Assembly: GCA_905234565.1 (NCBI GenBank)
Contig: CAJOHW010000006.1
Span: forward strand, 43,074 to 106,024
DNA: 62,951 nucleotides
Reading direction: 5' to 3'
From: an uncultured Oscillibacter sp.
Lineage (GTDB): Bacteria > Bacillota > Clostridia > Oscillospirales > Oscillospiraceae
The notes below the pieces were generated by a model. That model made no database searches. It was not told the DNA's origin and saw only the letters and a program-made list of their open reading frames with translations. This document shows positions 15,499 to 62,879 of this stretch, one piece after another (positions within the stretch are counted from its first letter, which is position 1; every line of letters starts with the position of its first letter). Both the position numbers and the translations under genes were made by a program.

Positions 15499-16680
15499 TC
15501 AGCGTTTCCGCTTTTTCCAGAAAGGCTGCTTCTCTTCCCCGCTTCCTCCGCCTCCGCCGCCTCCGCCGCCTCCGCCGCCTCCGGCGGTGCCCTCCACCTC
15601 ACCCATGGCCTCGGCGAACCTGCGCAGGGCCTCTTTCTGCTCCCGGGTCAGGTTCCGGGGGGTCTCAATGGTGACGGTGAAGTACTGATCCCCCCGTCCC
15701 CGGCCGTTCAGCAAGGGAATCCCCTTGCCTTTGAGCTGGAAGCGGGTACCGCTCTGGGTCCCGGCGGGCAGGTCGTAGCGGGTAGTGCCGTCCAGGGTGG
15801 GGACTTCCAGTTCCGCGCCTAAGGCCGCCTGGGCGAAGGTGACGGGAATCTGGCAAAAGACGCTGCTGCCCTCCCGCTGGAACAGTTCATGGGGCCGCAC
15901 GGCGATGACGATCTCCAAATCCCCGGCGGGACCGCCGTTTTTCCCGGCGTTGCCCTGGCCCCGGAGGACGATCTTCTGTCCATGGTCGATGCCCGCGGGG
16001 ATGGACACCTGGATGGTCCGGCGGCGGCGGATGGTGCCCGCCCCCCGGCACTCCTTGCAGGGCTGGTGGATGATCCGGCCCTTGCCGCCGCAGCGGGTAC
16101 AGGGGGCGGAGGACGCCATGGCCCCGAAGGGGGTCTGGCGGCGGATCTGGACCTGTCCGGTGCCCCGGCACTCCGGGCAGGTCTCCGGCGTGGTGCCCGG
16201 GGCGCAGCCGCTGCCGCCGCAGACGGTGCAGTTCTCCGCCCGCTCAATGGACACGTCCTTCCGGCACCCAAAGGCCGCCTCCTCGAACCGGACGGTCTGG
16301 GAGATGCGGATGCCGCCGCCCCGCTGGGGGGCGTTGGGATTGGCCCGCCGGGTGGAACCGAAGCCGCCGCCGAAGAAACTGCCGAAGATATCCCCCAGGT
16401 CCCCAAAGTCGAAGTCCCCAGTGAAGCCGCCGCCGGCTCCAAAGTTGGGATCCACCCCGGCGTGGCCGTACTGGTCATAGCGGGACTTCTTCTCCGGATC
16501 GGACAGCACGGCGTAAGCCTCTCCCACTTCTTTGAACTTCTCCTCCGCCGTCTTGTCGCCGGGGTTCAGGTCCGGGTGGTACTGCCGGGCCAGTTTTTTG
16601 TAGGCCTTCTTGATCTCCTCTTCCGACGCGCCCTTGCCGATGCCCAGGACCTCGTAATAGTCCCGTTTTTGTTCTGCCAT
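15499..16680 (-). CDS. dnaJ: Chaperone protein DnaJ
   Basis: The 393-residue Hsp40 stimulates DnaK ATPase and holds unfolded proteins. It has the J domain (1-70) with HPD in [10 protein letters not shown], a Gly/Phe region, four zinc-finger repeats ([32 protein letters not shown]) and the C-terminal substrate domains. Unusually it ends with a run of about a dozen glycines and then [14 protein letters not shown]. The glycine run comes from a (CCGCCT)n-type repeat at about 15550-15585. The start at 16680 follows GAGGTGG. It lies downstream of dnaK in the heat-shock operon. Confidence 0.97.
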
Positions 16681-16713
16681 TCTGAAAACCACCTCACGCG
16701 TTCAAACGCCGCA

Positions 16714-16758: not shown

Positions 16759-18591
16759 TTACTTATTCTGATCGTCGTCGTCTACAACCTTGTAGTCGGC
16801 GTCATAGTACTGGGCGCCGCCGTCGCTCTGGACATTGGGGTCCCCCTGCTGCTGGGGGGCGGCCTGCTGATAGAGCTTCTCGCTGACGGCGAAGAAGGAC
16901 TGCTTCAACTCCTCCGTGGCGGCCTTAATGGCGGCGGAATCCGTGCCCTTCAGGGCCTCTTTCAGCTTGTCGATGCCCCCCTGGACCTTGCCCTTGTCAT
17001 CGGCAGGGATCTTGTCGCCCATCTCGGACAGGGTCTTCTCGCTCTGGTACACCATCTGGTCCGCCTCGTTGCGCACTTCCACTTCCTCTTTCAGCCGCTT
17101 ATCCTCGGCGGCATACTGCTCCGCCTCCTTGACGGCCCGGTCAATGTCGTCCTTGCTCATGTTGGAGGAGGAGGTGATGGTAATGTGCTGTTCCTTGCCG
17201 GTGCCCAGATCCTTGGCGGAGACGTTGACAATGCCGTTGGCGTCGATGTCGAAGGTCACCTCAATCTGGGGCACTCCCCGGCGGGCGGGGGCGATGCCGT
17301 CCAGGTGGAAGCGGCCCAGGGACTTGTTGGCCGCCGCCATCTCCCGCTCGCCCTGGAGGACGTTGACTTCCACGCTGGTCTGGTTGTCCGCCGCCGTGGA
17401 GAAAATCTGGCTCTTTTTCACGGGGATGGTGGTGTTGCGGTCAATGAGCTTCGTGCATACGCCGCCCATGGTCTCAATGCCCAGGGACAGCGGGGTCACG
17501 TCCAGCAGGAGAAGGCCCTTTACATCCCCTTTCAGCACGCCCGCCTGCAGCGCCGCGCCCATGGCCACGCACTCGTCCGGGTTGATGCCCTTGAAGGGCT
17601 CGCTGCCCGTGTAGTTCTTCACGGCCTCCTGGACCGCCGGGATCCGGCTGGAACCGCCTACCAGCAGAACTTTGGCAAGGTCAGAGGGTTTCAGCCCCGC
17701 GTCGGACATGGCCTGGCGCACGGGTCCCATGGTGGCCTCTACCAGGTGTCCGGTCAGCTCGTTGAACTTGGCCCGGGTCAGAGTCATATCCAGGTGCTTG
17801 GGGCCGGAGGCATCGGCGGTGATATAGGGCAGGTTGATGTTGGAGGTGGTGACGCCGGAGAGCTCAATCTTGGCCTTCTCCGCCGCCTCTTTCAGCCGCT
17901 GCATGGCCACCTTGTCCCCGGAGAGGTCCACGCCCTCCGCCTTCTTAAACTCCGCCACCAGCCACTTCATGACGCACTCGTCAAAGTCGTCGCCGCCCAG
18001 ACGGTTGTTGCCCGCCGTGGCCAGCACCTCGATGACGCCGTCGTCGATTTCCAGGATGGACACGTCGAAGGTGCCGCCGCCCAGGTCATAGACCATGATC
18101 TTCTGGGACTGCTCCTTGTCCACGCCATAAGCCAGGGCCGCGGCGGTGGGCTCGTTGATGATGCGCAGCACGTTCAGTCCCGCGATCTTGCCCGCGTCTT
18201 TCGTGGCCTGGCGCTGGGAGTCCGTGAAGTAGGCGGGGACGGTGATGACGGCCTCCGTGACGGGCGAACCCAGATAGCTCTCCGCGTCGGATTTCAGCTT
18301 TTGGAGAATCATGGCGCTGATCTCCTGGGGAGTGGACTTCTTGCCGTCGATGTTCACCTTGTAGTCGCTGCCCATCTCCCGCTTGATGGAGGAGATGGTC
18401 CGCTCCGGGTTGGTAATGGCCTGGCGTTTTGCCACCTGGCCCACCATACGCTCTCCGGTCTTGGAGAAGGCCACCACGGACGGGGTGGTGCGGTTACCCT
18501 CCGCGTTGGGGATGACCACCGCCTCGCCGCCTTCCATGACGGCTACGCAGGAGTTGGTGGTACCAAGGTCAATGCCGATGACTTTAGACAT
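16759..18591 (-). CDS. dnaK: Chaperone protein DnaK
   Basis: The 610-residue Hsp70 binds and releases unfolded proteins in the cytoplasm using ATP. Signatures are [18 protein letters not shown] at the N-terminus, the phosphate-binding [25 protein letters not shown], the linker before [19 protein letters not shown], and an acidic tail ending [15 protein letters not shown] precedes the ATG. It is separated from grpE by the inserted ATPase/nuclease cassette. A weak TTGACA-19-CATAAT lies at 18661-18691 and might give separate transcription. Confidence 0.98.
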
Positions 18592-18660: not shown

Positions 18661-18691
18661 ATTATGCCGAGTATTGCTATTCCAGTGTCAA
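18661..18691 (-). promoter_or_regulatory. Possible weak dnaK promoter
   Basis: On the minus strand TTGACA (18686-18691, inside the 3' end of the nuclease-like gene) and CATAAT (18661-18666) have a poor 19-nt spacer. No CIRCE copy lies here. Confidence 0.25.
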
Positions 18692-19174
18692 ATCATTTTC
18701 ATCTTCCAATATACTGGAAAGTGTGTTGTCTATTTGATTCATATCTTCTTGCGAATAATAGCGGCATGGGGCAGATGCTTTGTCCAGCGCCTGTTTCGCC
18801 GGAGCAGTCAACCCGCTACCTCCTGTCAGCCAGTGTTCACTGACGTTTGGATTCTTCTCAATATCGCTTACAAATTTTTCCGCTACTGGTTTTCCAATTT
18901 TGCGATTGTAGTTCTTGTTATCCACCCTAACTTTAATTGCAGTGTCTGAAGAAGGCGGCGGTTCCTCATTCCCATTTTTCAAACTTTCCATTATATCTCC
19001 TATATTGTGAGGAGCCTTCAACTCCAAATCTAAGCCGTCATCAGGTTCATTTGTATAGGTTGGCCTTATGATATCTTCAATTATTCCGGCTTCTACCGCT
19101 TTGATAAAGGTTTTAATAGTGTTCAGTTCCCCAGTCTTTCCTTTATCTGGTTTTCTCCTTTCTCTTTTCCCCAT
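18677..19174 (-). CDS. Mrr-like PD-(D/E)xK nuclease-fold protein
   Basis: The product is about 165 residues. A GELNTIKTFIKAV helix is followed by DDGLDLEL, then IKVRVDNKNYNRKIGKPVAEKF, and HWLTGGSGLTAPAKQAL. This order matches the restriction-endonuclease fold of Mrr-type enzymes: an acidic residue in GxDL, then D-x-K on the next strand (here DNK), then a strand ending in a Thr/Ser-rich turn before a helix. The assignment is by motif reading only. The start may be ATG 19174 or the upstream TTG 19189, which would overlap the previous gene. It is the last gene of an AT-rich cassette lying between grpE and dnaK. Confidence 0.55.
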   Translation of the reverse strand: MGKRERRKPDKGKTGELNTIKTFIKAVEAGIIEDIIRPTYTNEPDDGLDLELKAPHNIGDIMESLKNGNEEPPPSSDTAIKVRVDNKNYNRKIGKPVAEKFVSDIEKNPNVSEHWLTGGSGLTAPAKQALDKASAPCRYYSQEDMNQIDNTLSSILEDENDLTLE

Positions 19175-19178
19175 GATA

Positions 19179-19574
19179 CTACCCCACAATCACAAAGATG
19201 TTGTCTTGGTCCGCATACTTGGTTATCTTCTTTCTCAGAAGCTTTCTTGCGTTGAGAATCATAGTAATCCTGTCAAAACAGATATCTCTCTGTTTTGCGG
19301 AAATATCATTCTTTGTGATTTCTGTCATTAAATTCCTGGCAGTTTCTTCACACCCCCCTACAATCTGGCGAATTTCAGTAGTCTTAACCGCTTTCTGCTG
19401 ATAAGGAGGACCCTCCTGTGTATCCCAAATATCAATATCAGCTACATGACTATCGACATCCCTCGAAAGGAAATCATCCGTCAACTCTACCGATTCCAAA
19501 TTTTTGCTATTGCAGTCACTGTATTTCCCCTGTCCCAGATCAGAATAACTGGTTAAGATTAAATTCATGCTCAT
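19179..19574 (-). CDS. Unknown protein of the AAA/nuclease cassette
   Basis: The 131-residue product is not recognised. It begins MSMNLILTSYSDLG, has a polar, Asp-rich first half (DVDSHVADIDIWD) and a helical C-terminal half (ETARNLMTEITKNDISAKQR, ILNARKLLRKKITKYADQ). It has no signal peptide or membrane helix. Its ATG overlaps the ATPase stop (ATGA), and its stop lies at the start of the nuclease-like gene, so the three genes are translationally coupled and probably act together. It could be an adaptor or sensor, but no sequence motif supports a specific role. Confidence 0.7.
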   Translation of the reverse strand: MSMNLILTSYSDLGQGKYSDCNSKNLESVELTDDFLSRDVDSHVADIDIWDTQEGPPYQQKAVKTTEIRQIVGGCEETARNLMTEITKNDISAKQRDICFDRITMILNARKLLRKKITKYADQDNIFVIVG

Positions 19575-20368
19575 TTTGTTTCCCCCTTCACCAGTTTGAG
19601 AAGCGTTTTTCCGTTTACCTGTGCGGAATCACCATGATTTGCAAGATACAGATTTTTCATTTTATCCTTGATTACCGAGAAAGACAAGCATTGTTCAAAC
19701 GCAGCTCTGGCGATTTCCGCATTCTCCTGCCTGTCAGAAAAATATTCAGAAAATGGATTCTCCTTGTGTGTCAGGAATCGGATAATATCTTCTTCACTAC
19801 CGTTTTTTATCTCCGCTTGATACCCAAACCGCCTGATAATAGCAGGATCAAGGTTTTTCTTGAAATTGGTTGTGCATAAAATCATCAGATTTGGATTGTA
19901 GCAGTCCAAATATTCCATCATAACTGTAAGTGCTCGCTTCATGTCTGGCAAATCACGCGATGTCTGCCTGTCTGGAAAGAAAGCTTCTATCTCCTCGATT
20001 AACAGAAATGTCGGATATTCTACAGATTCTTGAAGAATATAATTAAAAGCTTTGCTTAGATTCTTGGAAGTCTCCCCCAGCTTTTCGGAAATAATCTCAG
20101 GCAGTTTGAGTTGATAATAAGTTGCATCGGAACAAGAGAGCATACAATCATAACAGATGGAGGTTTTTCCTGTTCCCGGCTTCCCATAGAGCAGCACGTT
20201 TCCATTTAGGTTAAGAAATTTAAGATACGAGGAATTCAATTCTGCCGTATCAAATTTAATCCGTGCAAGGGCTTTGATTTCCTGACGTTCCTGTTCATAA
20301 CCTGTCAGCGCGGCTACTCTGCATCTCATTTCATCCCGGTCAATCTCTCTTAGAAATTCAACATCCAT
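19571..20368 (-). CDS. AAA+ ATPase of the cassette inserted in the heat-shock operon
   Basis: The 265-residue protein has one AAA+ domain: Walker A GKPGTGKT (62-69), Walker B FLLIEE (121-126, with Glu-Glu where Asp-Glu is usual), sensor 1 CTTN (165-168) and an arginine finger in IIRRF (177-181). The order and spacing resemble FtsH/Cdc48-type AAA domains rather than McrB. A short N-terminal region (1-45) precedes the domain, and no protease or membrane part is present. The ATG at 20368 has GGAG upstream and lies 36 nt after the grpE remnant. The codons are AT-rich compared with the neighbours, which suggests acquisition by transfer. Confidence 0.8.
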   Translation of the reverse strand: MDVEFLREIDRDEMRCRVAALTGYEQERQEIKALARIKFDTAELNSSYLKFLNLNGNVLLYGKPGTGKTSICYDCMLSCSDATYYQLKLPEIISEKLGETSKNLSKAFNYILQESVEYPTFLLIEEIEAFFPDRQTSRDLPDMKRALTVMMEYLDCYNPNLMILCTTNFKKNLDPAIIRRFGYQAEIKNGSEEDIIRFLTHKENPFSEYFSDRQENAEIARAAFEQCLSFSVIKDKMKNLYLANHGDSAQVNGKTLLKLVKGETK

Positions 20369-20403
20369 ATAAAATCTCCGTAGGATTTCCCCGCAGTGTC
20401 AGT

Positions 20404-20962
20404 CTAATTCGCCACCGCCACCGCCGCGTGGCGGATGACCTTGCCGCCCAGGAGAAAGCCCGCCTGAAACACCTGGGACACCTCGTTCTCTCCGAACTTC
20501 TCGTCCTCAATGTGCATGCGGGTCAAAAGGTTTGCCCAGGGCCTCAATCTCCGTGACGCCTAAGTTTTTCAGAATCTCCCGGTACTTCTGGAAGATCATC
20601 TCCAACCCCTTCTTGTGGGGGGAGTCCTCTCCGCCCTCCTGGGCGGCGGCCCGCTCCAAATCGTCGTACACCGCCAAAAACGCCTTGACGGTATCCGCCT
20701 TGGCGTCCTGATACAGGGCGTCCTTTTCCCGGACGGTGCGCTTGCGGTAGTTCTCATACTCCGCCGCTAAGCGCACAAACTGGTCCTTGGTGGTTTCCAG
20801 CTGTTTGGCGGCCTCCTCCATGCGCTCCACCTGTTCCCGGGTGAAGGTAAAGGTTTCTCCGCCGCCCTCCGGCTTCGTCTCTTCGGGCTGCTTCTCTGTC
20901 TCCGGTTCCGTGGGCGGGACCTCCCCGCCGTCCTGTACCGGTTCCCGGTCCTCTGGTGTCAT
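20404..20962 (-). pseudogene. grpE: grpE with a frameshifting deletion in the C-terminal domain
   Basis: GrpE is the nucleotide-exchange factor for DnaK. The first 151 codons read normally: an acidic N-terminus, the long dimer helix (FTREQVERMEEAAKQLE, KDQFVRLAAEYENYRKR) and GKPFDP. The frame then stops at HAH-TGA (20507). The expected continuation NAVMHIEDEKFGENEV...VIRHAAVAVAN is present in another frame down to TAG at 20404. Compared with the family pattern DPxxHxAVM, 17 nt are missing at about 20512-20522. The beta domain that contacts DnaK would therefore be lost. The ATG overlaps the hrcA stop by 4 nt. A sequencing or assembly error remains possible. Confidence 0.8.
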
Positions 20963-22002
20963 GACTGTGATTCCTCCTTCGGGGGTAAAGGTTTCGCGCC
21001 GAACAGCCGGGCCATGCCCTCGGCAAAGCCTGTGAGCCGTGCGGCGACTTGGGCGTAATCCATGCGGGTGGGTCCCACCACGCCGATGAGGCCCCGCATC
21101 TCGTCGCCGATATCGTAACTGGCCACCACCACGCTGGCGTCCCGCAGGGCGTTGGACACGTTCTCCGGGCCGATGAGGATTTTCACCGGGGCGTCCTCCT
21201 CCGGCACCGGCAGGGCCTCCTTTCCATCGGAGAGGAAGCTCATGAGGGCATGGGCCTTTCCCGCGTCCCGGAACTCCGGCAGTTTCAGCAGCTCCCGGGC
21301 CCCGGCGGTGACGATGCTGCGCTGCTGCTCTTCCAGAACGTCCCCTGCGTAGGCGGCGATCTGGGACAACAGCAGAAACACGTTGGGGGGCAGCTGTCCG
21401 GTCAGATCCATGACCCGCTCCTCAATGCTGTCTCCCGCAAGGCCCGTAAAGTGGGCGTTCAGGAGATTGGCCAGCGCCGGCAGCTGCTCCGGCTCCACAG
21501 GAAGCTGCAGGCGCAGAAGCTGGCTTTTCACCCGGCTGCTGGACAGCATCAGCACGGCAATGCACTGTCCCGGGTCCACGCCGATGAGGTCAAACCGCCG
21601 CACGGACAGCTTCTTCTTTCCCGCCGCCGCCGCGTAGGTGGGGTAGTTCAAAAACGCCGACGCCGCCCGGCCCGCCTGGGCGATGATCCGGTCCATCTCC
21701 TCCAATCGGGTCCGGAGCGCCGCGTTGATGGCCTCCGTCTCCCGGAGGGACAGGCGCTGGTGTTCCATCAGGGAGTCCACGTACAGCCGGTAGCCCCGGT
21801 GGGTGGGGGCGCGTCCGGCGGAGGTGTGGGGCTGTTCCAGATACCCCAACTCCGTCAGGGCGTTCAACTCACTGCGGATGGTGGCAGAGCTGACGCCGCC
21901 CATTTTCGCGGCGATGGTCCGGGACCCCACCGGTTCGGCGGTGCGCACGTACTCCTCCACCACGATTTTCAGCACTTGCTTTTTTCGTTCTGTCAGTTCC
22001 AC
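20959..22002 (-). CDS. hrcA: Heat-inducible transcription repressor HrcA
   Basis: The 347-residue repressor binds CIRCE elements and is kept active by GroEL. The N-terminal winged helix is visible (RKKQVLKIVVEEYVRTAEPV, GSRTIAAKMGGVSSATIR, LEQPHTSAGRAPTHRGYR), followed by the GAF-like and insert domains and NRMDYA-type motif GPTRMDYAQV. The start is GTG at 22002, matching the family N-terminus MELTERKKQ. A perfect CIRCE lies 25 nt upstream, so the gene represses its own operon. Confidence 0.96.
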   Translation of the reverse strand: MELTERKKQVLKIVVEEYVRTAEPVGSRTIAAKMGGVSSATIRSELNALTELGYLEQPHTSAGRAPTHRGYRLYVDSLMEHQRLSLRETEAINAALRTRLEEMDRIIAQAGRAASAFLNYPTYAAAAGKKKLSVRRFDLIGVDPGQCIAVLMLSSSRVKSQLLRLQLPVEPEQLPALANLLNAHFTGLAGDSIEERVMDLTGQLPPNVFLLLSQIAAYAGDVLEEQQRSIVTAGARELLKLPEFRDAGKAHALMSFLSDGKEALPVPEEDAPVKILIGPENVSNALRDASVVVASYDIGDEMRGLIGVVGPTRMDYAQVAARLTGFAEGMARLFGAKPLPPKEESQS

Positions 22003-22026: not shown

Positions 22027-22053
22027 TTAGCACTCGTTTCCTTCGAGTGCTAA
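22027..22053 (-). promoter_or_regulatory. CIRCE operator
   Basis: The sequence TTAGCACTC-N9-GAGTGCTAA is a perfect HrcA-binding CIRCE element, placed just downstream of the -10 box of the hrcA promoter. Confidence 0.97.
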
Positions 22054-22176: not shown

Positions 22177-23580
22177 TCACCCCGGAAGGTTCAGGTCCTC
22201 CATCCAGCGGTCCTCCTCATAGGGGTTGAAGTGGGCGTTGATCAGTCTCAGCGTCTCTTTGGGATCGGCGTACATATAGGGATTCCGCCAGGAGCTGGGC
22301 AGGGTGAAGAACTCCACCCCCTCGGGGCCGATGTCGATGGCCTTCTGCCCCAGCCACATTAAATTCGGAAGGGTCAGATCCGTGTCCACGTACTGCCGGA
22401 AGATCTTCACAAACCGGGTCAGTTTCGGGATGCTGGCAGGGGACAGCATCTTCTTCGCCACTGCCTTCAAGAACTTCTGCTGGGTGCCCATGCGGCCAAC
22501 GTCCTGGCTTCCGTAGCCGGAGCCGTCGTTGTTGTGGCGGAAACGCACCACTTTCAGGGCCGTCTCCCCGTCCAGGTGCTGCATTCCGGCGGAGACGTGG
22601 ATGTAAAGGTCCTGAAGTTCATCGTCATAGTCCATATCTAAGGGCACGTCAAAGTCCACGCCGTCAATGGCGTCCACCAGGGCGGCAAAGCCCGTCAGGT
22701 CGATCTCCATGGTGTAGTCAATGGGAATTCCCAACTGATTGGACACCGTAGCGGCCAGGAGGTCAATGCCCCCTTGGTTGTAGGCGTTGTTGATTTTGTG
22801 GAACCTCCCCTTCACCACGGCCTTGGTGTCCCGGGGGATGCTGACGGCGGCAATGGCCTTGTTCCGCACGTCCAGAGACGCCAGAATGATGGTGTCGCTG
22901 CCGCCGTTGCCGTCGTCCACCCCCGCCAGCAGGATGGTGAAGAAGTCCTCCTTGCGGAGCTGGTGGAAGGTAATATCGGCGAAGCGGGGGGAGTCCAGTT
23001 CCGGAGCGGCGGCGGCCAGTTCCTCCTCAGAGGGCAGGACGATGGGAGGCTGGAAAATGACCGTCTGCGTGGGTTCCTTGGCCTCCAATTCCTGAAAAGC
23101 GAAATGCCCTGCCAGGCGGATCAGGGCAAAGGCCAGCACCGCCGCCAGGACCATCCGGGGCAGGAGAAGGCGCGGCAGGGAACGCCTCCGCCGCCGGGAG
23201 GGGACCCGCCGCGTCCTTGCGGGAGCGCCGCTTCTCCGGATGGAAAGCTGTTCCCCCGTCGCCTGTGCGGGACTGGCTGTCCGGGCAGGACTGGCCCTCC
23301 GGGCGGGACTGGTCCTCCGGGCGGGACTGGCCGTCCGGGCAGGACTTGCCGTCCGGGCAGGACTTGCCGTCCGGGCAGGACTGGCCGTCCGGGCGGGACT
23401 TACCCTCCGCCGGGACCGCCGGGGCTGGGGGGGATATTCCGCCCCGGGGACGCCGCGGCGGGTTTTGACCGTACCGGCGGCGGGGACTGGCTTGTCCCTC
23501 CGGCCGGAACGGGGCTGGGGCATATAAGGCCGGGTCCGGCGGACCTGGCGCCGCTTGCGCGGTTCGTCATGAGCGGGCAT
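22177..23580 (-). CDS. LytR-CpsA-Psr family wall-polymer ligase with SPARTA repeats
   Basis: LCP proteins attach teichoic acids or polysaccharides to peptidoglycan outside the membrane. The 467-residue protein has a basic cytoplasmic N-terminus, eight hexapeptide repeats of SPARTA type (61-108), one membrane helix (about 137-157) and the LCP domain with ILLAGVDD, GGSDTIILASLD, AVSIPRDTKAVV, HKINNAYNQGG and RFRHNNDGSGYGSQDVGR. The conserved Asp and Arg residues for polyprenyl-phosphate binding are present. AAAGGAG precedes the ATG at 23580. The repeat region is unusual in the family and is likely variable in length. Confidence 0.92.
   Translation of the reverse strand: MPAHDEPRKRRQVRRTRPYMPQPRSGRRDKPVPAAGTVKTRRGVPGAEYPPQPRRSRRRVSPARTASPARTASPARTASPARTASPARRTSPARRASPARTASPAQATGEQLSIRRSGAPARTRRVPSRRRRRSLPRLLLPRMVLAAVLAFALIRLAGHFAFQELEAKEPTQTVIFQPPIVLPSEEELAAAAPELDSPRFADITFHQLRKEDFFTILLAGVDDGNGGSDTIILASLDVRNKAIAAVSIPRDTKAVVKGRFHKINNAYNQGGIDLLAATVSNQLGIPIDYTMEIDLTGFAALVDAIDGVDFDVPLDMDYDDELQDLYIHVSAGMQHLDGETALKVVRFRHNNDGSGYGSQDVGRMGTQQKFLKAVAKKMLSPASIPKLTRFVKIFRQYVDTDLTLPNLMWLGQKAIDIGPEGVEFFTLPSSWRNPYMYADPKETLRLINAHFNPYEEDRWMEDLNLPG
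23257..23400 (-). repeat. 18-nt tandem repeat encoding SPARTA hexapeptides
   Basis: Eight 18-nt units (about 144 nt) encode SPARTA and close variants (SPARRT, SPARRA, SPAQAT) in the cytoplasmic tail of the LCP protein. Confidence 0.9.
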
Positions 23581-60273: not shown

Positions 60274-60978
60274 ATGGAAGCGGCATTGTTGGGAACGGCG
60301 GGCGTGTTGGAACAGGAGCGCAGACGGCGTCAGGAGCGGGTCCGGGCCAGGAATGAACCGCCCCGGCTCAGCGCGGAGGAGGAACGGTTCAACACCCTGA
60401 GCCACGGCGCGGGGGTGCTTCTGGGCGCGGTCTGCACCGCGTTGCTGCTGGCAAAGTCCGATACGGCTTGGAAACTGGCGGCCTCCCTGGTGTACGGCGG
60501 CAGTATGACCCTCATGATGCTCATGAGCAGCATCTACCACGCCATGCCCACAGGCTCCGGGGCGAAACGGTTCTGCCGCCGCCTGGACTATACCTCCATC
60601 TTCCTCCTCATCGGCGGTACCTTCGCCCCGATTCTGCTGGTGTATCTGGGGGGTACGGCGGGACTGCTCCTGTTCTGCGGCCAGTGGGCCGTGATTCTGG
60701 CGGGAGCGGGCCTGGTGCTGGCCTTCGGACCGGGACAGTGGCGGGCCGCCATGTTCACCCTGTATTTCGTGCTGGGCTGGAGCGGCCTGGCCTTTCTGCC
60801 GGAGTTCTTCCGCAACGCCCCTACCCTTCTGTGGTTCATCCTCATGGGCGGCATCGTCTACACCACGGGCATGATCCCCTTCGCCCGGAAGCGGAAATAT
60901 GACCACTGCGTCTGGCACCTCTTTGTGCTGGCGGCGGCCCTTCTCCACTTCCTCGGCATCTATACGCAGATCTATTGA
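60274..60978 (+). CDS. Hemolysin III family membrane protein
   Basis: The 234-residue protein belongs to the PAQR/HlyIII family. About seven membrane helices are visible, with the conserved SSIYHAMP, RRLDYTSIFLLIGGTFAP and YDHCVWHLFVLAAALLHF, whose Ser, Asp and His residues bind zinc in this superfamily. The role in bacteria is uncertain, and hydrolase activity on lipids is suggested. An extra charged N-terminus of about 38 residues precedes the first helix. AGGAGG precedes the ATG at 60274. Confidence 0.9.
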   Translation: MEAALLGTAGVLEQERRRRQERVRARNEPPRLSAEEERFNTLSHGAGVLLGAVCTALLLAKSDTAWKLAASLVYGGSMTLMMLMSSIYHAMPTGSGAKRFCRRLDYTSIFLLIGGTFAPILLVYLGGTAGLLLFCGQWAVILAGAGLVLAFGPGQWRAAMFTLYFVLGWSGLAFLPEFFRNAPTLLWFILMGGIVYTTGMIPFARKRKYDHCVWHLFVLAAALLHFLGIYTQIY

Positions 60979-60995
60979 ATCGTCCTTCTGTGCAT

Positions 60996-61038
60996 CGAAC
61001 CGCCCTGTCCGGCCTGGACAAGGCGGTTCGAGGATTTT
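60996..61038 (+). terminator. Terminator after the hemolysin-III gene
   Basis: CGAACCGCC pairs with GGCGGTTCG, with an inner TGTCC/GGACA stem, followed by AGGATTTTCC. Confidence 0.65.
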
Positions 61039-61074
61039 CCCCCAGATCCGGCAGGGTTCCCCCGGGCCGGACGG

Positions 61075-61103
61075 TTGCAAATCCGCAGCGGTTCCGGTAT
61101 AAT
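61075..61103 (+). promoter_or_regulatory. Hsp70-like gene promoter
   Basis: TTGCAA (61075-61080) and TATAAT (61098-61103) are 17 nt apart. No CIRCE is present. Confidence 0.7.
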
Positions 61104-61151
61104 AGGCCTGTTACATCCTCTATGAACCAGCGGAGGGAACGGGGGCAGGTT

Positions 61152-62879
61152 ATGGCGATCATCGGAATTGATTTGGGCACCACCAACTCTCTGGCGGCGG
61201 TATGGCGGAGGGGACGCAGCGAACTGATCCCCAACGCGGCGGGAGAGTTTTTGACCCCCAGCGTGGTCAGCGTGGACGACGACGGGACAATCCTGGTGGG
61301 CAGGGCGGCGGCGGACCGCCTGGTCTCCCATCCGGACCGCACTGCCGCCGGCTTCAAACGGGATCTGGGCACCGATCAGCGCCGCCGTCTGGGCAGCCTC
61401 TCCTTCTCCCCGGAAGAACTGGCCTCCTTTGTCCTCCGCTCCCTGCGTCAGGACGCAGAACAGTTCCTGGGAGAGCCAGTGGAGGAAGCCGTCCTCAGCG
61501 TCCCCGCCTACTTCGCTGAGGACCAGCGCGCCGCCGCAAAACGGGCCGCCGCCCTGGCGGGACTGCGGGTGGATCGGCTCATCAACGAGCCCTCCGCCGC
61601 CGCTGTGGCCGGGGCAGATGGAAAGGAGTCCCTGTCCCTGGTATTTGACTTCGGCGGAGGCACTCTGGACGTGTCCCTGGTGGAGCGGTTTGAGAACGTC
61701 ATCAGCGTCACGGCGGTCAGCGGCGACAACCGTTTGGGCGGCCGGGACTTCGACGAGGCCATTGCCCGGGCCTTCTGCCGGGAGACGGGCCTGGTGTACG
61801 GGAACCTGTCCCCCCGGCAGAGGGGCATTCTGCTGCGGCAGGCGGAGAGCTGTAAGATCGCTTTGAGCTTCCGGGAACCGGTACTCATGGCGGTGAATGA
61901 CGGGGAGATGGCGGCGTCCCTGCTCTTGACCGGGGAGTGGGTCATCCGCAAGTGCGGGAACCTGTTCCGCCGCATGGCTGCCCCGGTGCGGAAGGTGTTT
62001 TTGGACGCCGGCATCGCCCCCGCCGAACTGGACAGCCTGGTCCTGGTGGGCGGTTCCAGCCAAATGCCGGTGGTGCGGGGGTATATCGCCGGAATCTTAG
62101 GTTTGGAACCCGCCAGGATTCCCCGTCCCGACACGGCGGTGGCCCTGGGTCTGGGATACTGCGCCGGCATGAAGGGCGGTGCGGCGGATCTGCGGGAACT
62201 GGTGCTGACAGACGTGTGCCCCTTTACCCTGGGCATCGACGTGCTGAACCGGGGGGAACCGGGACGGCCCCTCATGTCCCCTATCATTGAGCGGAACAGC
62301 GTCCTGCCCGCCAGCAAAGAGGCCTTCTACCGTACGTCCCACGACAACCAGGACCGGGTGGAAATCCGGATCTATCAGGGGGAACACCGCTACTGCGGCG
62401 ACAACCTGTATCTGGGCAAGCTGTCTTTGGACGTGGCCCCGGCCCCCAGAGGGGAACAGTCCGTGCGGGTGCGGTTTACCTATGACATCAACGGCCTCTT
62501 AGAGGTAGAAGCCATCGGCGGAAACGGCCAGCACTCCCGGCTGATCCTCCGCAAGGGCGGCATGGAGGAGACAGAGGCCCTGCGGCGGCTGGAAGAACTG
62601 AAAAACCTAAAACTCCATCCCCGAAACCAGGAGACCAACCGGGCCGTCACCGCCCGGGGAGAGCGGCTGTACGCCATGACCGTAGGAGATCTCCGCAACC
62701 GGGTGGGACAGACCTTAGACTGGTTTCAGCATCAGCTGTCCAGCCAGGAGCCTCTGCGTATCGCCCGGGCAAGGCGGCAGACGGACCGCTTCTTCGATCA
62801 GGTGGAGGCCTATCTGGGGGACACCGCCTTTCCCTACGCCGCCACAGAGGAGCCCCCGGAAGGAGAGGAGGACCTTTGA
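61152..62879 (+). CDS. Hsp70 family chaperone, HscC-like
   Basis: The 575-residue protein is a second Hsp70, distinct from DnaK. It has [49 protein letters not shown] and TDVCPFTLGIDVLNRG. The substrate domain is shorter than in DnaK and the usual acidic tail is reduced to EEPPEGEEDL, which fits HscC. The start at 61152 fits the family. A J-domain protein gene overlaps its stop, as hscC and its J partner are neighbours in Escherichia coli, so the pair is likely to work together on special clients. Confidence 0.9.
   Translation: MAIIGIDLGTTNSLAAVWRRGRSELIPNAAGEFLTPSVVSVDDDGTILVGRAAADRLVSHPDRTAAGFKRDLGTDQRRRLGSLSFSPEELASFVLRSLRQDAEQFLGEPVEEAVLSVPAYFAEDQRAAAKRAAALAGLRVDRLINEPSAAAVAGADGKESLSLVFDFGGGTLDVSLVERFENVISVTAVSGDNRLGGRDFDEAIARAFCRETGLVYGNLSPRQRGILLRQAESCKIALSFREPVLMAVNDGEMAASLLLTGEWVIRKCGNLFRRMAAPVRKVFLDAGIAPAELDSLVLVGGSSQMPVVRGYIAGILGLEPARIPRPDTAVALGLGYCAGMKGGAADLRELVLTDVCPFTLGIDVLNRGEPGRPLMSPIIERNSVLPASKEAFYRTSHDNQDRVEIRIYQGEHRYCGDNLYLGKLSLDVAPAPRGEQSVRVRFTYDINGLLEVEAIGGNGQHSRLILRKGGMEETEALRRLEELKNLKLHPRNQETNRAVTARGERLYAMTVGDLRNRVGQTLDWFQHQLSSQEPLRIARARRQTDRFFDQVEAYLGDTAFPYAATEEPPEGEEDL

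What the first reader, a model, noticed from the sequence alone, without database searches (positions are those of the whole stretch)
18677..20368. AT-rich AAA+ ATPase / unknown / Mrr-like nuclease cassette inserted inside the heat-shock operon
hrcA and grpE are normally followed directly by dnaK. Here three overlapping genes on the same strand sit between grpE and dnaK. Their base composition is clearly more AT-rich than the flanks. One has a complete AAA+ core with an EE Walker B, and one carries a GxDL...DxK nuclease pattern. ATPase plus nuclease is the plan of many antiphage systems, and placement under CIRCE/HrcA control would make it stress-inducible. I do not know a described system with these three proteins.
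Basis: partly seen in the sequence, partly recalled or inferred. Interest (0 to 1): 0.82.

Follow-up and report, generated by a model that had tools for sequence, protein, structure and literature searches.

The report
Foreign ATPase-nuclease cassette in heat-shock operon
A bacterium carries a foreign-looking three-gene set (a molecular motor, an unknown small protein and a DNA-cutting-type enzyme) lodged inside its heat-shock operon; rare relatives in unrelated bacteria sit beside anti-virus or toxin genes, so it is probably an undescribed conflict system.

Summary
Three co-directional genes lie between grpE and dnaK: a 265-aa AAA ATPase, a 131-aa acidic protein (p2) and a 165-aa protein (p3). 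GC is 0.41 against 0.62 outside. Congeners examined lack them: grpE-dnaK gaps are 44-370 nt in 24 of 29 loci, 5 not parsed. p3 has no confident family match, but its model (pLDDT 75, pTM 0.70) is a PD-(D/E)xK core; the best solved matches are AspBHI and MspJI, Mrr-type restriction enzymes. The catalytic-type residues are invariant in four distant p3 proteins. I found p2-p3 pairs in Treponema, Providencia and Pantoea; an AAA-p2-p3 set, p3 split, in a second spirochaete-side genome; and a decayed AAA/p3 remnant in a third. Four of four intact outside loci sit beside defence or toxin-antitoxin genes. The AAA is IetA-like, but the subtilase partner IetS is absent. Best reading: a rare, horizontally moving conflict module in which an IetA-like ATPase controls a nuclease effector, here a passenger of the HrcA/CIRCE operon. 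Anti-phage activity is inferred, not shown. It is a new variant of a known kind.

The parts
19571..20368 (-). AAA ATPase, 265 aa, IetA-like core without the IetA N-terminal region
   Evidence: Pfam AAA 1.1e-20; PADLOC IetA 2.2e-27, profile positions 119-296 of 374; relative in spirochaete-side locus L063, 33% identity
19179..19574 (-). p2, 131 aa acidic protein of unknown fold; ATG overlaps AAA stop
   Evidence: no family; p2 genes upstream of p3 in L014, L015, L030; leave-one-out E 0.005 for the window member, best shuffled 0.053; model unusable, pLDDT 44
18677..19174 (-). p3, 165 aa PD-(D/E)xK-fold protein (GKxGE, TNxxDxGxD, RxDxK); alternative TTG start at 19189
   Evidence: leave-one-out E 7e-25 for the window member
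22027..22053 (.). perfect CIRCE (HrcA operator) at the head of the operon
   Evidence: promoter-like site 22086-22058 on the minus strand
20959..22002 (-). hrcA
   Evidence: named from sequence, recalled
20507..20962 (-). grpE, N-terminal reading frame (ends ...FDPHAH)
   Evidence: single match in the assembly
20404..20517 (-). grpE, C-terminal part in another frame (37 aa from an overlapping ATG)
16759..18591 (-). dnaK, directly downstream of the cassette
   Evidence: named from sequence, recalled
15499..16692 (-). dnaJ
   Evidence: named from sequence, recalled
20394..20401 (.). 8-bp direct repeat CAGTGTCA, copy near the grpE end (possible target duplication)
   Evidence: 3 copies in 63 kb, two of them at the cassette ends
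18683..18690 (.). 8-bp direct repeat CAGTGTCA, copy inside the last codons of p3

Best explanation
A rare, horizontally moving three-gene conflict module. p3 is the effector, a PD-(D/E)xK DNase of the Mrr/MspJI type without its own recognition domain. p2 is its regular partner (tether, specificity or restraint). The IetA-like AAA ATPase, present in a subset of loci, controls the pair: it holds or remodels it, and releases or loads p3 on DNA when the cell is invaded or the ATPase is disturbed. In this genome the module has landed between grpE and dnaK and is probably transcribed from the CIRCE/HrcA promoter, so stress, including that of phage infection, would raise its level. Shown: foreign composition, absence from the congeners examined, gene order, predicted fold and conserved active-site-type residues of p3, the two- and three-gene sets elsewhere, and defence or toxin-antitoxin neighbours. 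Inferred: DNA cleavage, p2's role, the ATPase as controller, co-transcription, and defence as the benefit.
For: p3 family: 23 invariant columns among four rows with 24-27% identity to the window member, covering G11-K12-G14-E15, D44/D48 and R82-D84-K86 (numbering without the first Met). The AlphaFold2 model runs helix-strand-strand-(helix)-strand-helix-strand, with these residues on the first helix, at the second strand and at the end of the third strand. Foldseek's best are AspBHI (1.6e-4), MspJI (8e-4) and EndoMS (1.3e-3) in the PDB, and phage 'restriction endonuclease' entries among the best viral models. The Treponema p3 has a sub-threshold Pfam PDDEXK_15 match (E 0.014). The L063 p3 has QNK in place of DNK; Mrr and MspJI are described as PD-QxK (passages of PMC12707154). 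Linkage: p2-p3 in L030, L014 and L015; AAA-p2-p3 in L063; decayed AAA/p3 remnant in L067 between gltX and trpE-like genes. Both AAAs hit the same IetA model best (2.2e-27 and 4.3e-27). Neighbours: RT-Toprim retron I-C 1.3e-202, PDC-M09A/B 1.1e-25 and 7.2e-13, PD-T4-5/AbiD-like 2.7e-13, HigB-like (Gp49) and HTH pair 1.2e-19 and 1.3e-13. Module GC is below the rest of the fetched stretch in five of five loci.
Against: No activity was tested. p2 of L063 has no detectable sequence similarity to window p2, and window p2 is only weakly tied to the others (E 0.005; best shuffles in the five p2 tests were 0.008-0.09). p3 of L063 is split into two coupled frames and L067 is decayed, so some copies may be dead. 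The window AAA core scores better against two IetA proteins (80 and 72 bits) than against the L063 AAA (68 bits), and the tree left an unresolved fork, so the AAA could have been recruited twice. Only one of five p3 models was good (pLDDT 75; the others 49 or less) and Foldseek rmsd is 6-7 A for the top three. No background rate of defence genes near random loci was measured. In L063 the whole right-hand stretch is as AT-rich as the module. The module was found in no phage or viral record, within the reach of those searches. Internal promoter-like sites exist.
Confidence: 0.55

Rival explanations
1. It is a toxin-antitoxin or addiction module: p3 is a DNase toxin, the acidic p2 encoded just upstream (and/or the IetA-like AAA) is the antitoxin, and the benefit is maintenance of the element rather than phage defence.
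For: p2 is acidic in all five members (pI 4.5-5.1) and encoded upstream of p3. An IetA-type AAA is the antitoxin and a subtilase the toxin in SGI1 S026/S025 and pTiC58 IetAS (passages of PMC5006074). Two of the outside loci are on plasmids.
Against: Chromosomal copies sit among housekeeping genes (window; L067), where plasmid-type addiction gives little. p3 itself is acidic in the window and Pantoea (pI 5.0, 5.7), so a simple charge pairing does not hold. Three of the four outside neighbours are defence genes; one is a toxin-antitoxin pair. Many defence systems also look like toxin-antitoxin pairs (recalled), so this overlaps with the best explanation.
Confidence: 0.25
2. It is a modification-dependent (type IV-like) restriction system analogous to McrBC: the AAA is a DNA motor or loader, p2 reads the mark, p3 cuts.
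For: Closest solved folds of p3 are modification-dependent enzymes AspBHI and MspJI; McrBC joins an AAA NTPase to a separate PD-(D/E)xK nuclease (passage in PMC12707154).
Against: No methyltransferase or recognition-domain family was found in the cassette. Three of the loci lack an intact AAA at the module. The AAA resembles Cdc48/IetA; no McrB family was hit. Nuclease-domain similarity does not set the modification preference (passage of PMC3874153).
Confidence: 0.12
3. The genes are decaying selfish passengers with no present function in this host, kept only because the insertion is recent.
For: A decayed copy in L067 and a split p3 in L063; the adjacent grpE is frameshifted; very patchy distribution.
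Against: All three window frames are open, tightly packed and keep the AAA and p3 active-site motifs.
Confidence: 0.08

Closest known systems
IetAS (AAA ATPase IetA plus S8 subtilase IetS)
   Same: The AAA core hits PADLOC IetA at 2.2e-27 and the NCBIfam anti-phage ATPase model NF042959 at 1.5e-23, but far below its cutoff (83.6 against 510 bits). Small mobile conflict module with an AAA partner.
   Different: No subtilase; the partners are p2 and a PD-(D/E)xK protein. The AAA is 265 aa and its match starts at profile position 119. Of the 8 AAA relatives whose loci I fetched, 7 have a subtilase gene next to the AAA (annotated; Pfam Peptidase_S8 for the loci); Butyrivibrio does not.
Mrr / MspJI / AspBHI type IV and IIM restriction endonucleases
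   Same: Fold and D...(D/Q)xK active-site layout of p3.
   Different: No winged-helix or SRA domain on p3; no Pfam Mrr hit; partner proteins instead.
McrBC
   Same: Separate AAA+ and PD-(D/E)xK subunits (PMC12707154 passage).
   Different: Neither protein hits McrB or McrC families; extra p2; the AAA is Cdc48/IetA-like.

Membership tests
IetAS | IetA-type AAA ATPase | tested here: inconclusive
   Core matches IetA models (2.2e-27), N-terminal part missing, far below the NCBIfam cutoff; tree unresolved
IetAS | adjacent S8 subtilase IetS | tested here: not met
   Downstream genes are p2, p3, dnaK; p2 and p3 have no Pfam hit at E up to 10
Mrr/MspJI-type restriction endonuclease | PD-(D/E)xK (Mrr_cat) fold with D...(D/E/Q)xK | tested here: met
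   (fold level; one good model of five, query TM-scores 0.45-0.51 to AspBHI and MspJI)
Mrr/MspJI-type restriction endonuclease | sequence membership in Mrr_cat or a related Pfam/NCBIfam family | tested here: not met
   no family for window p3; only a sub-threshold PDDEXK_15 match for the Treponema p3
Mrr/MspJI-type restriction endonuclease | fused recognition domain (winged helix or SRA) | tested here: not met
   p3 is 165 aa, nuclease core only
McrBC | McrB GTPase and McrC nuclease families | tested here: not met
   no McrB/McrC family
PADLOC candidate PDC-M02 | PDC-M02A protein | tested here: inconclusive
   weak hit E 0.009 for window p3 only; none for its relatives at E 1 or 0.1; 0 of 197 order genomes, but the control genomes were silent too
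Toxin-antitoxin system | toxicity of one product neutralised by another | not testable with these tools
   needs expression in a laboratory strain
Anti-phage defence system | reduced phage propagation | not testable with these tools
   only neighbourhood evidence: 4 of 4 intact outside loci beside defence or toxin-antitoxin genes

The most novel reading that the evidence does not exclude
An undescribed family of conflict systems whose core is p2 plus a stand-alone PD-(D/E)xK nuclease, which has recruited an IetA-type AAA controller (the effector slot filled by a DNase instead of the IetS protease) and in this host has been wired by position into the chaperone operon. The ATPase would sense protein-folding or phage-induced chaperone stress and unleash the nuclease, so that the DnaK/GrpE machinery that phages exploit is guarded by the system lodged inside it.
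Probability: 0.2. Interest if true: 0.75.

Novelty: new variant of a known kind. Interest (0 to 1): 0.52.

Why it matters
It adds a candidate conflict module with two protein families (p2, p3) that have no confident match in Pfam, NCBIfam, PHROGs or PADLOC as searched here. It also hints that IetA-type ATPases can go with effectors other than subtilase. A defence-like cassette as a passenger in an HrcA/CIRCE operon, if expressed, would be a simple way to make immunity stress-inducible, and is directly testable by heat shock and phage challenge.

Tried and rejected
Rejected: (1) the cassette as a fixed part of the operon in relatives: 36 congeners gave AAA matches of E 7e-11 or worse (3 of 36 none), nearly all inside frames of over 600 aa, 24 of 29 congener loci have short gaps; the five unparsed (L039, L041, L043, L049, L055) belong to genomes whose AAA matches all lie in frames over 600 aa. 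(2) Four weak class-level profile hits (E 4e-4 to 7e-3) lie inside what I recognise as ParB, aminopeptidase, formate-THF ligase and elongation-factor-G-like frames; dropped as chance. (3) PDC-M02A as the family of p3: weak and not reproduced in relatives. (4) Transposon origin: no transposase-like ORF in the cassette, and no inverted repeat joins the two ends; only an 8-bp direct repeat, roughly a 2% coincidence by my estimate. (5) Structure of p2: unusable model. (6) AAA tree: unresolved. (7) Sub-threshold Pfam matches of relatives not relied on: DUF5663 (E 0.003) for Treponema p2 and PDDEXK_15 (0.014) for its p3; CENPU (0.0055) for L063 p2. (8) Paper searches: PDC-M02, 0 papers; HrcA with CIRCE and anti-phage, 0; grpE, dnaK, hrcA, inserted between and defense, 3, off topic by title; three of the terms AAA+ ATPase, Mrr-like nuclease, three-gene and anti-phage, 2, not this system by listing. 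The library lacks most subscription papers.

Scans without a relative: p3 in phages and viral contigs; AAA and p2 in viral contigs by short peptides; Providencia pair in E. coli genomes; window p3 in genome contigs; L063 p3 piece in plasmids. The genome-contig scan with A3 gave 1 locus. p3 in PDB sequences: only chance-level matches.

Full report
WHAT IS THERE. They lie between grpE and dnaK. The AAA stop and p2 start overlap. Their GC is 0.407, against 0.620 (sd 0.022, minimum 0.543) in 1158 same-length windows elsewhere in the 63 kb, and their third-position GC (0.39-0.46) is about half that of the neighbouring chaperone genes (0.78-0.87). A perfect CIRCE stands at the head of the operon (22027-22053) beside a promoter-like site (22086-22058). 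No terminator-like site was found between grpE and dnaK; the single one in the scanned region lies inside hrcA, where 4.7 are expected by chance over the region. Three weak promoter-like sites lie inside the cassette on the coding strand (8 in all in the region, 2.9 expected). Co-transcription under HrcA is therefore likely but unproven.

NOT A NORMAL PART OF THE OPERON. Of 61 genomes of the genus (own included), 55 gave a DnaK N-terminal match. I received 30 loci, 29 of them congeners; in 24 the grpE-dnaK gap could be read and was 44-370 nt, 5 were not parsed by my pattern. A search for the AAA in 36 congeners gave only matches of E 7e-11 or worse, nearly all within frames of more than 600 aa. 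p3 was found only in the own genome among 394 order genomes, 17 genus genomes and 388 phylum genomes, own genome counted in each. In 391 class genomes the own match was joined by four weak ones that I judged chance.

THE NUCLEASE. Window p3 has no match in Pfam or NCBIfam, a weak PADLOC hit (PDC-M02A, E 0.009) that its relatives do not share, and one chance-level PHROGs hit. tblastn found relatives on a Providencia rettgeri plasmid (9e-9) and on three Pantoea agglomerans plasmids (4e-5; counted as one locus). A profile scan of genome contigs found one in a Treponema MAG, L030. A profile search found 2 of 344 genomes in that genome's phylum and 3 of 146 in the genus of the second hit, the sets sharing two genomes. 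Leave-one-out profiles recover every one of five members at 3e-12 or better, against best shuffled values of 0.03-0.1. Invariant in four rows: GKxGE, TNxxDxGxD, RxDxK, KFV, HxLxGG. The predicted model (window plus L030 rows only) has mean pLDDT 74.9 and pTM 0.70; the other four models were poor (49 or less). Its order of elements fits the PD-(D/E)xK core, with one extra helix before the third strand. Foldseek's best solved chains are AspBHI, MspJI and EndoMS; nucleases of this fold and RNA polymerase subunit RPB5, which I recall shares it, fill most of the next ranks. Viral models named restriction endonuclease also rank high. TM-scores are modest (0.45-0.51 by query for AspBHI and MspJI) and rmsd is 6-7 A, as expected from a moderate model.

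THE PARTNERS. In Providencia (L014:73-492), Pantoea (L015:6586-6990) and Treponema (L030:4576-4983) a p2-like gene of 134-139 aa lies immediately upstream of p3. Among these three p2 homology is clear (leave-one-out E 1.3e-6 or better); the window p2 is weakly tied (0.005 against 0.053 for its best shuffle). None of these three has an intact AAA at the module: the Treponema contig has a stop-containing C-terminal AAA piece downstream that looks like a different AAA. A second spirochaete-side genome, G1017 (L063), has the window's order AAA (250 aa), p2-sized ORF (122 aa), p3, with p3 split into two coupled frames, TAATG. The two AAAs are 33% identical (pairwise E 3e-23) and hit the same IetA model best. 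Against a shared origin, the window AAA core scores 80 and 72 bits with two IetA proteins and 68 with the L063 AAA, and a tree left their relation unresolved. The L063 p2 shows no sequence similarity to window p2, so there the link is position only. A third genome, G1205 (L067), holds an AAA piece followed by the p3 C-terminus between gltX and trpE-like genes: a decayed copy in another housekeeping setting.

THE ATPASE'S OTHER RELATIVES. Of 166 plasmid and 13 phage records with an AAA match at 1e-8, I fetched 8 loci. In 7 the AAA is followed by a subtilase gene, the IetAS plan; the Butyrivibrio one is not. Profiles of p3 (A1) and p2 (A2) found no convincing p3 or p2 in those 8 loci.

NEIGHBOURS. 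The four intact outside loci lie beside: RT-Toprim retron I-C (Providencia); PDC-M09A and B (Treponema); a PD-T4-5/AbiD-like gene (Pantoea); a HigB-like/HTH pair (L063). I did not measure how often random loci of this sort have such neighbours. Module GC is below the rest of the fetched stretch in five of five loci, though in L063 the whole right-hand stretch is equally AT-rich.

HOW IT PROBABLY WORKS. p3 is a bare nuclease core, so recognition and restraint must come from its partners. A p2-sized gene precedes p3 in all five intact loci (window included), so p2-p3 is the basic unit. The AAA is the optional controller. In IetAS the AAA is the antitoxin of a protease toxin (passages of PMC5006074), and McrBC joins an AAA NTPase to a separate nuclease subunit (passage of PMC12707154). 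I favour control of a DNase effector by an IetA-like ATPase, giving abortive or restrictive defence. Toxin-antitoxin maintenance is the main rival and may be the same machine with a different benefit.

WHAT IT IS NOT. It is not IetAS (no subtilase), not McrBC, and not a sequence member of Mrr. p2 and p3 have no confident match in PADLOC-DB 2.0.0 (2023); later defence catalogues could not be searched.

LIMITS. The genome is a 74-contig assembly. grpE is a single match and frameshifted by a 17-nt deletion, which could be real or an assembly error. The 8-bp direct repeat at the cassette ends suggests, but does not prove, an insertion event. Papers: PMC5006074, PMC12707154, PMC3874153 and PMC12629846 were seen as passages only; others as listings.

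Noticed in passing
20404-20962: The only grpE match of the assembly carries a 17-nt deletion relative to 17 congeners; it reads as a 151-aa N-terminal frame and an overlapping 37-aa C-terminal frame. Either a truly split GrpE next to the cassette or an assembly error.
   Followed up: partly
60975-62879: A second Hsp70/DnaK-like protein (HSP70 E 1e-104; N-terminal part 39% identical to DnaK's) on the plus strand near the window's end.
   Followed up: partly
18683-18690 and 20394-20401: 8-bp direct repeat CAGTGTCA at both ends of the cassette; only three copies in the 63 kb.
   Followed up: partly
15499-16692: The dnaJ product has an unusual glycine run near its C-terminus.
   Followed up: no
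22177-23580: Protein with repeated TASPAR-like units near its N-terminus (looks like a LytR-CpsA-Psr family protein, recalled).
   Followed up: no
L014:1106-2851: A 6.9-kb Providencia plasmid carries an RT-Toprim retron next to the p2-p3 pair: two candidate defence units on a tiny plasmid.
   Followed up: partly
L030:928-4092: PDC-M09A/B candidate defence genes upstream of the p2-p3 pair in Treponema, with a stop-containing AAA remnant downstream.
   Followed up: partly
L063:5500-12501: The AAA-p2-p3 set lies near one edge of an AT-rich island (GC about 0.3 against 0.5-0.6 to its left).
   Followed up: no
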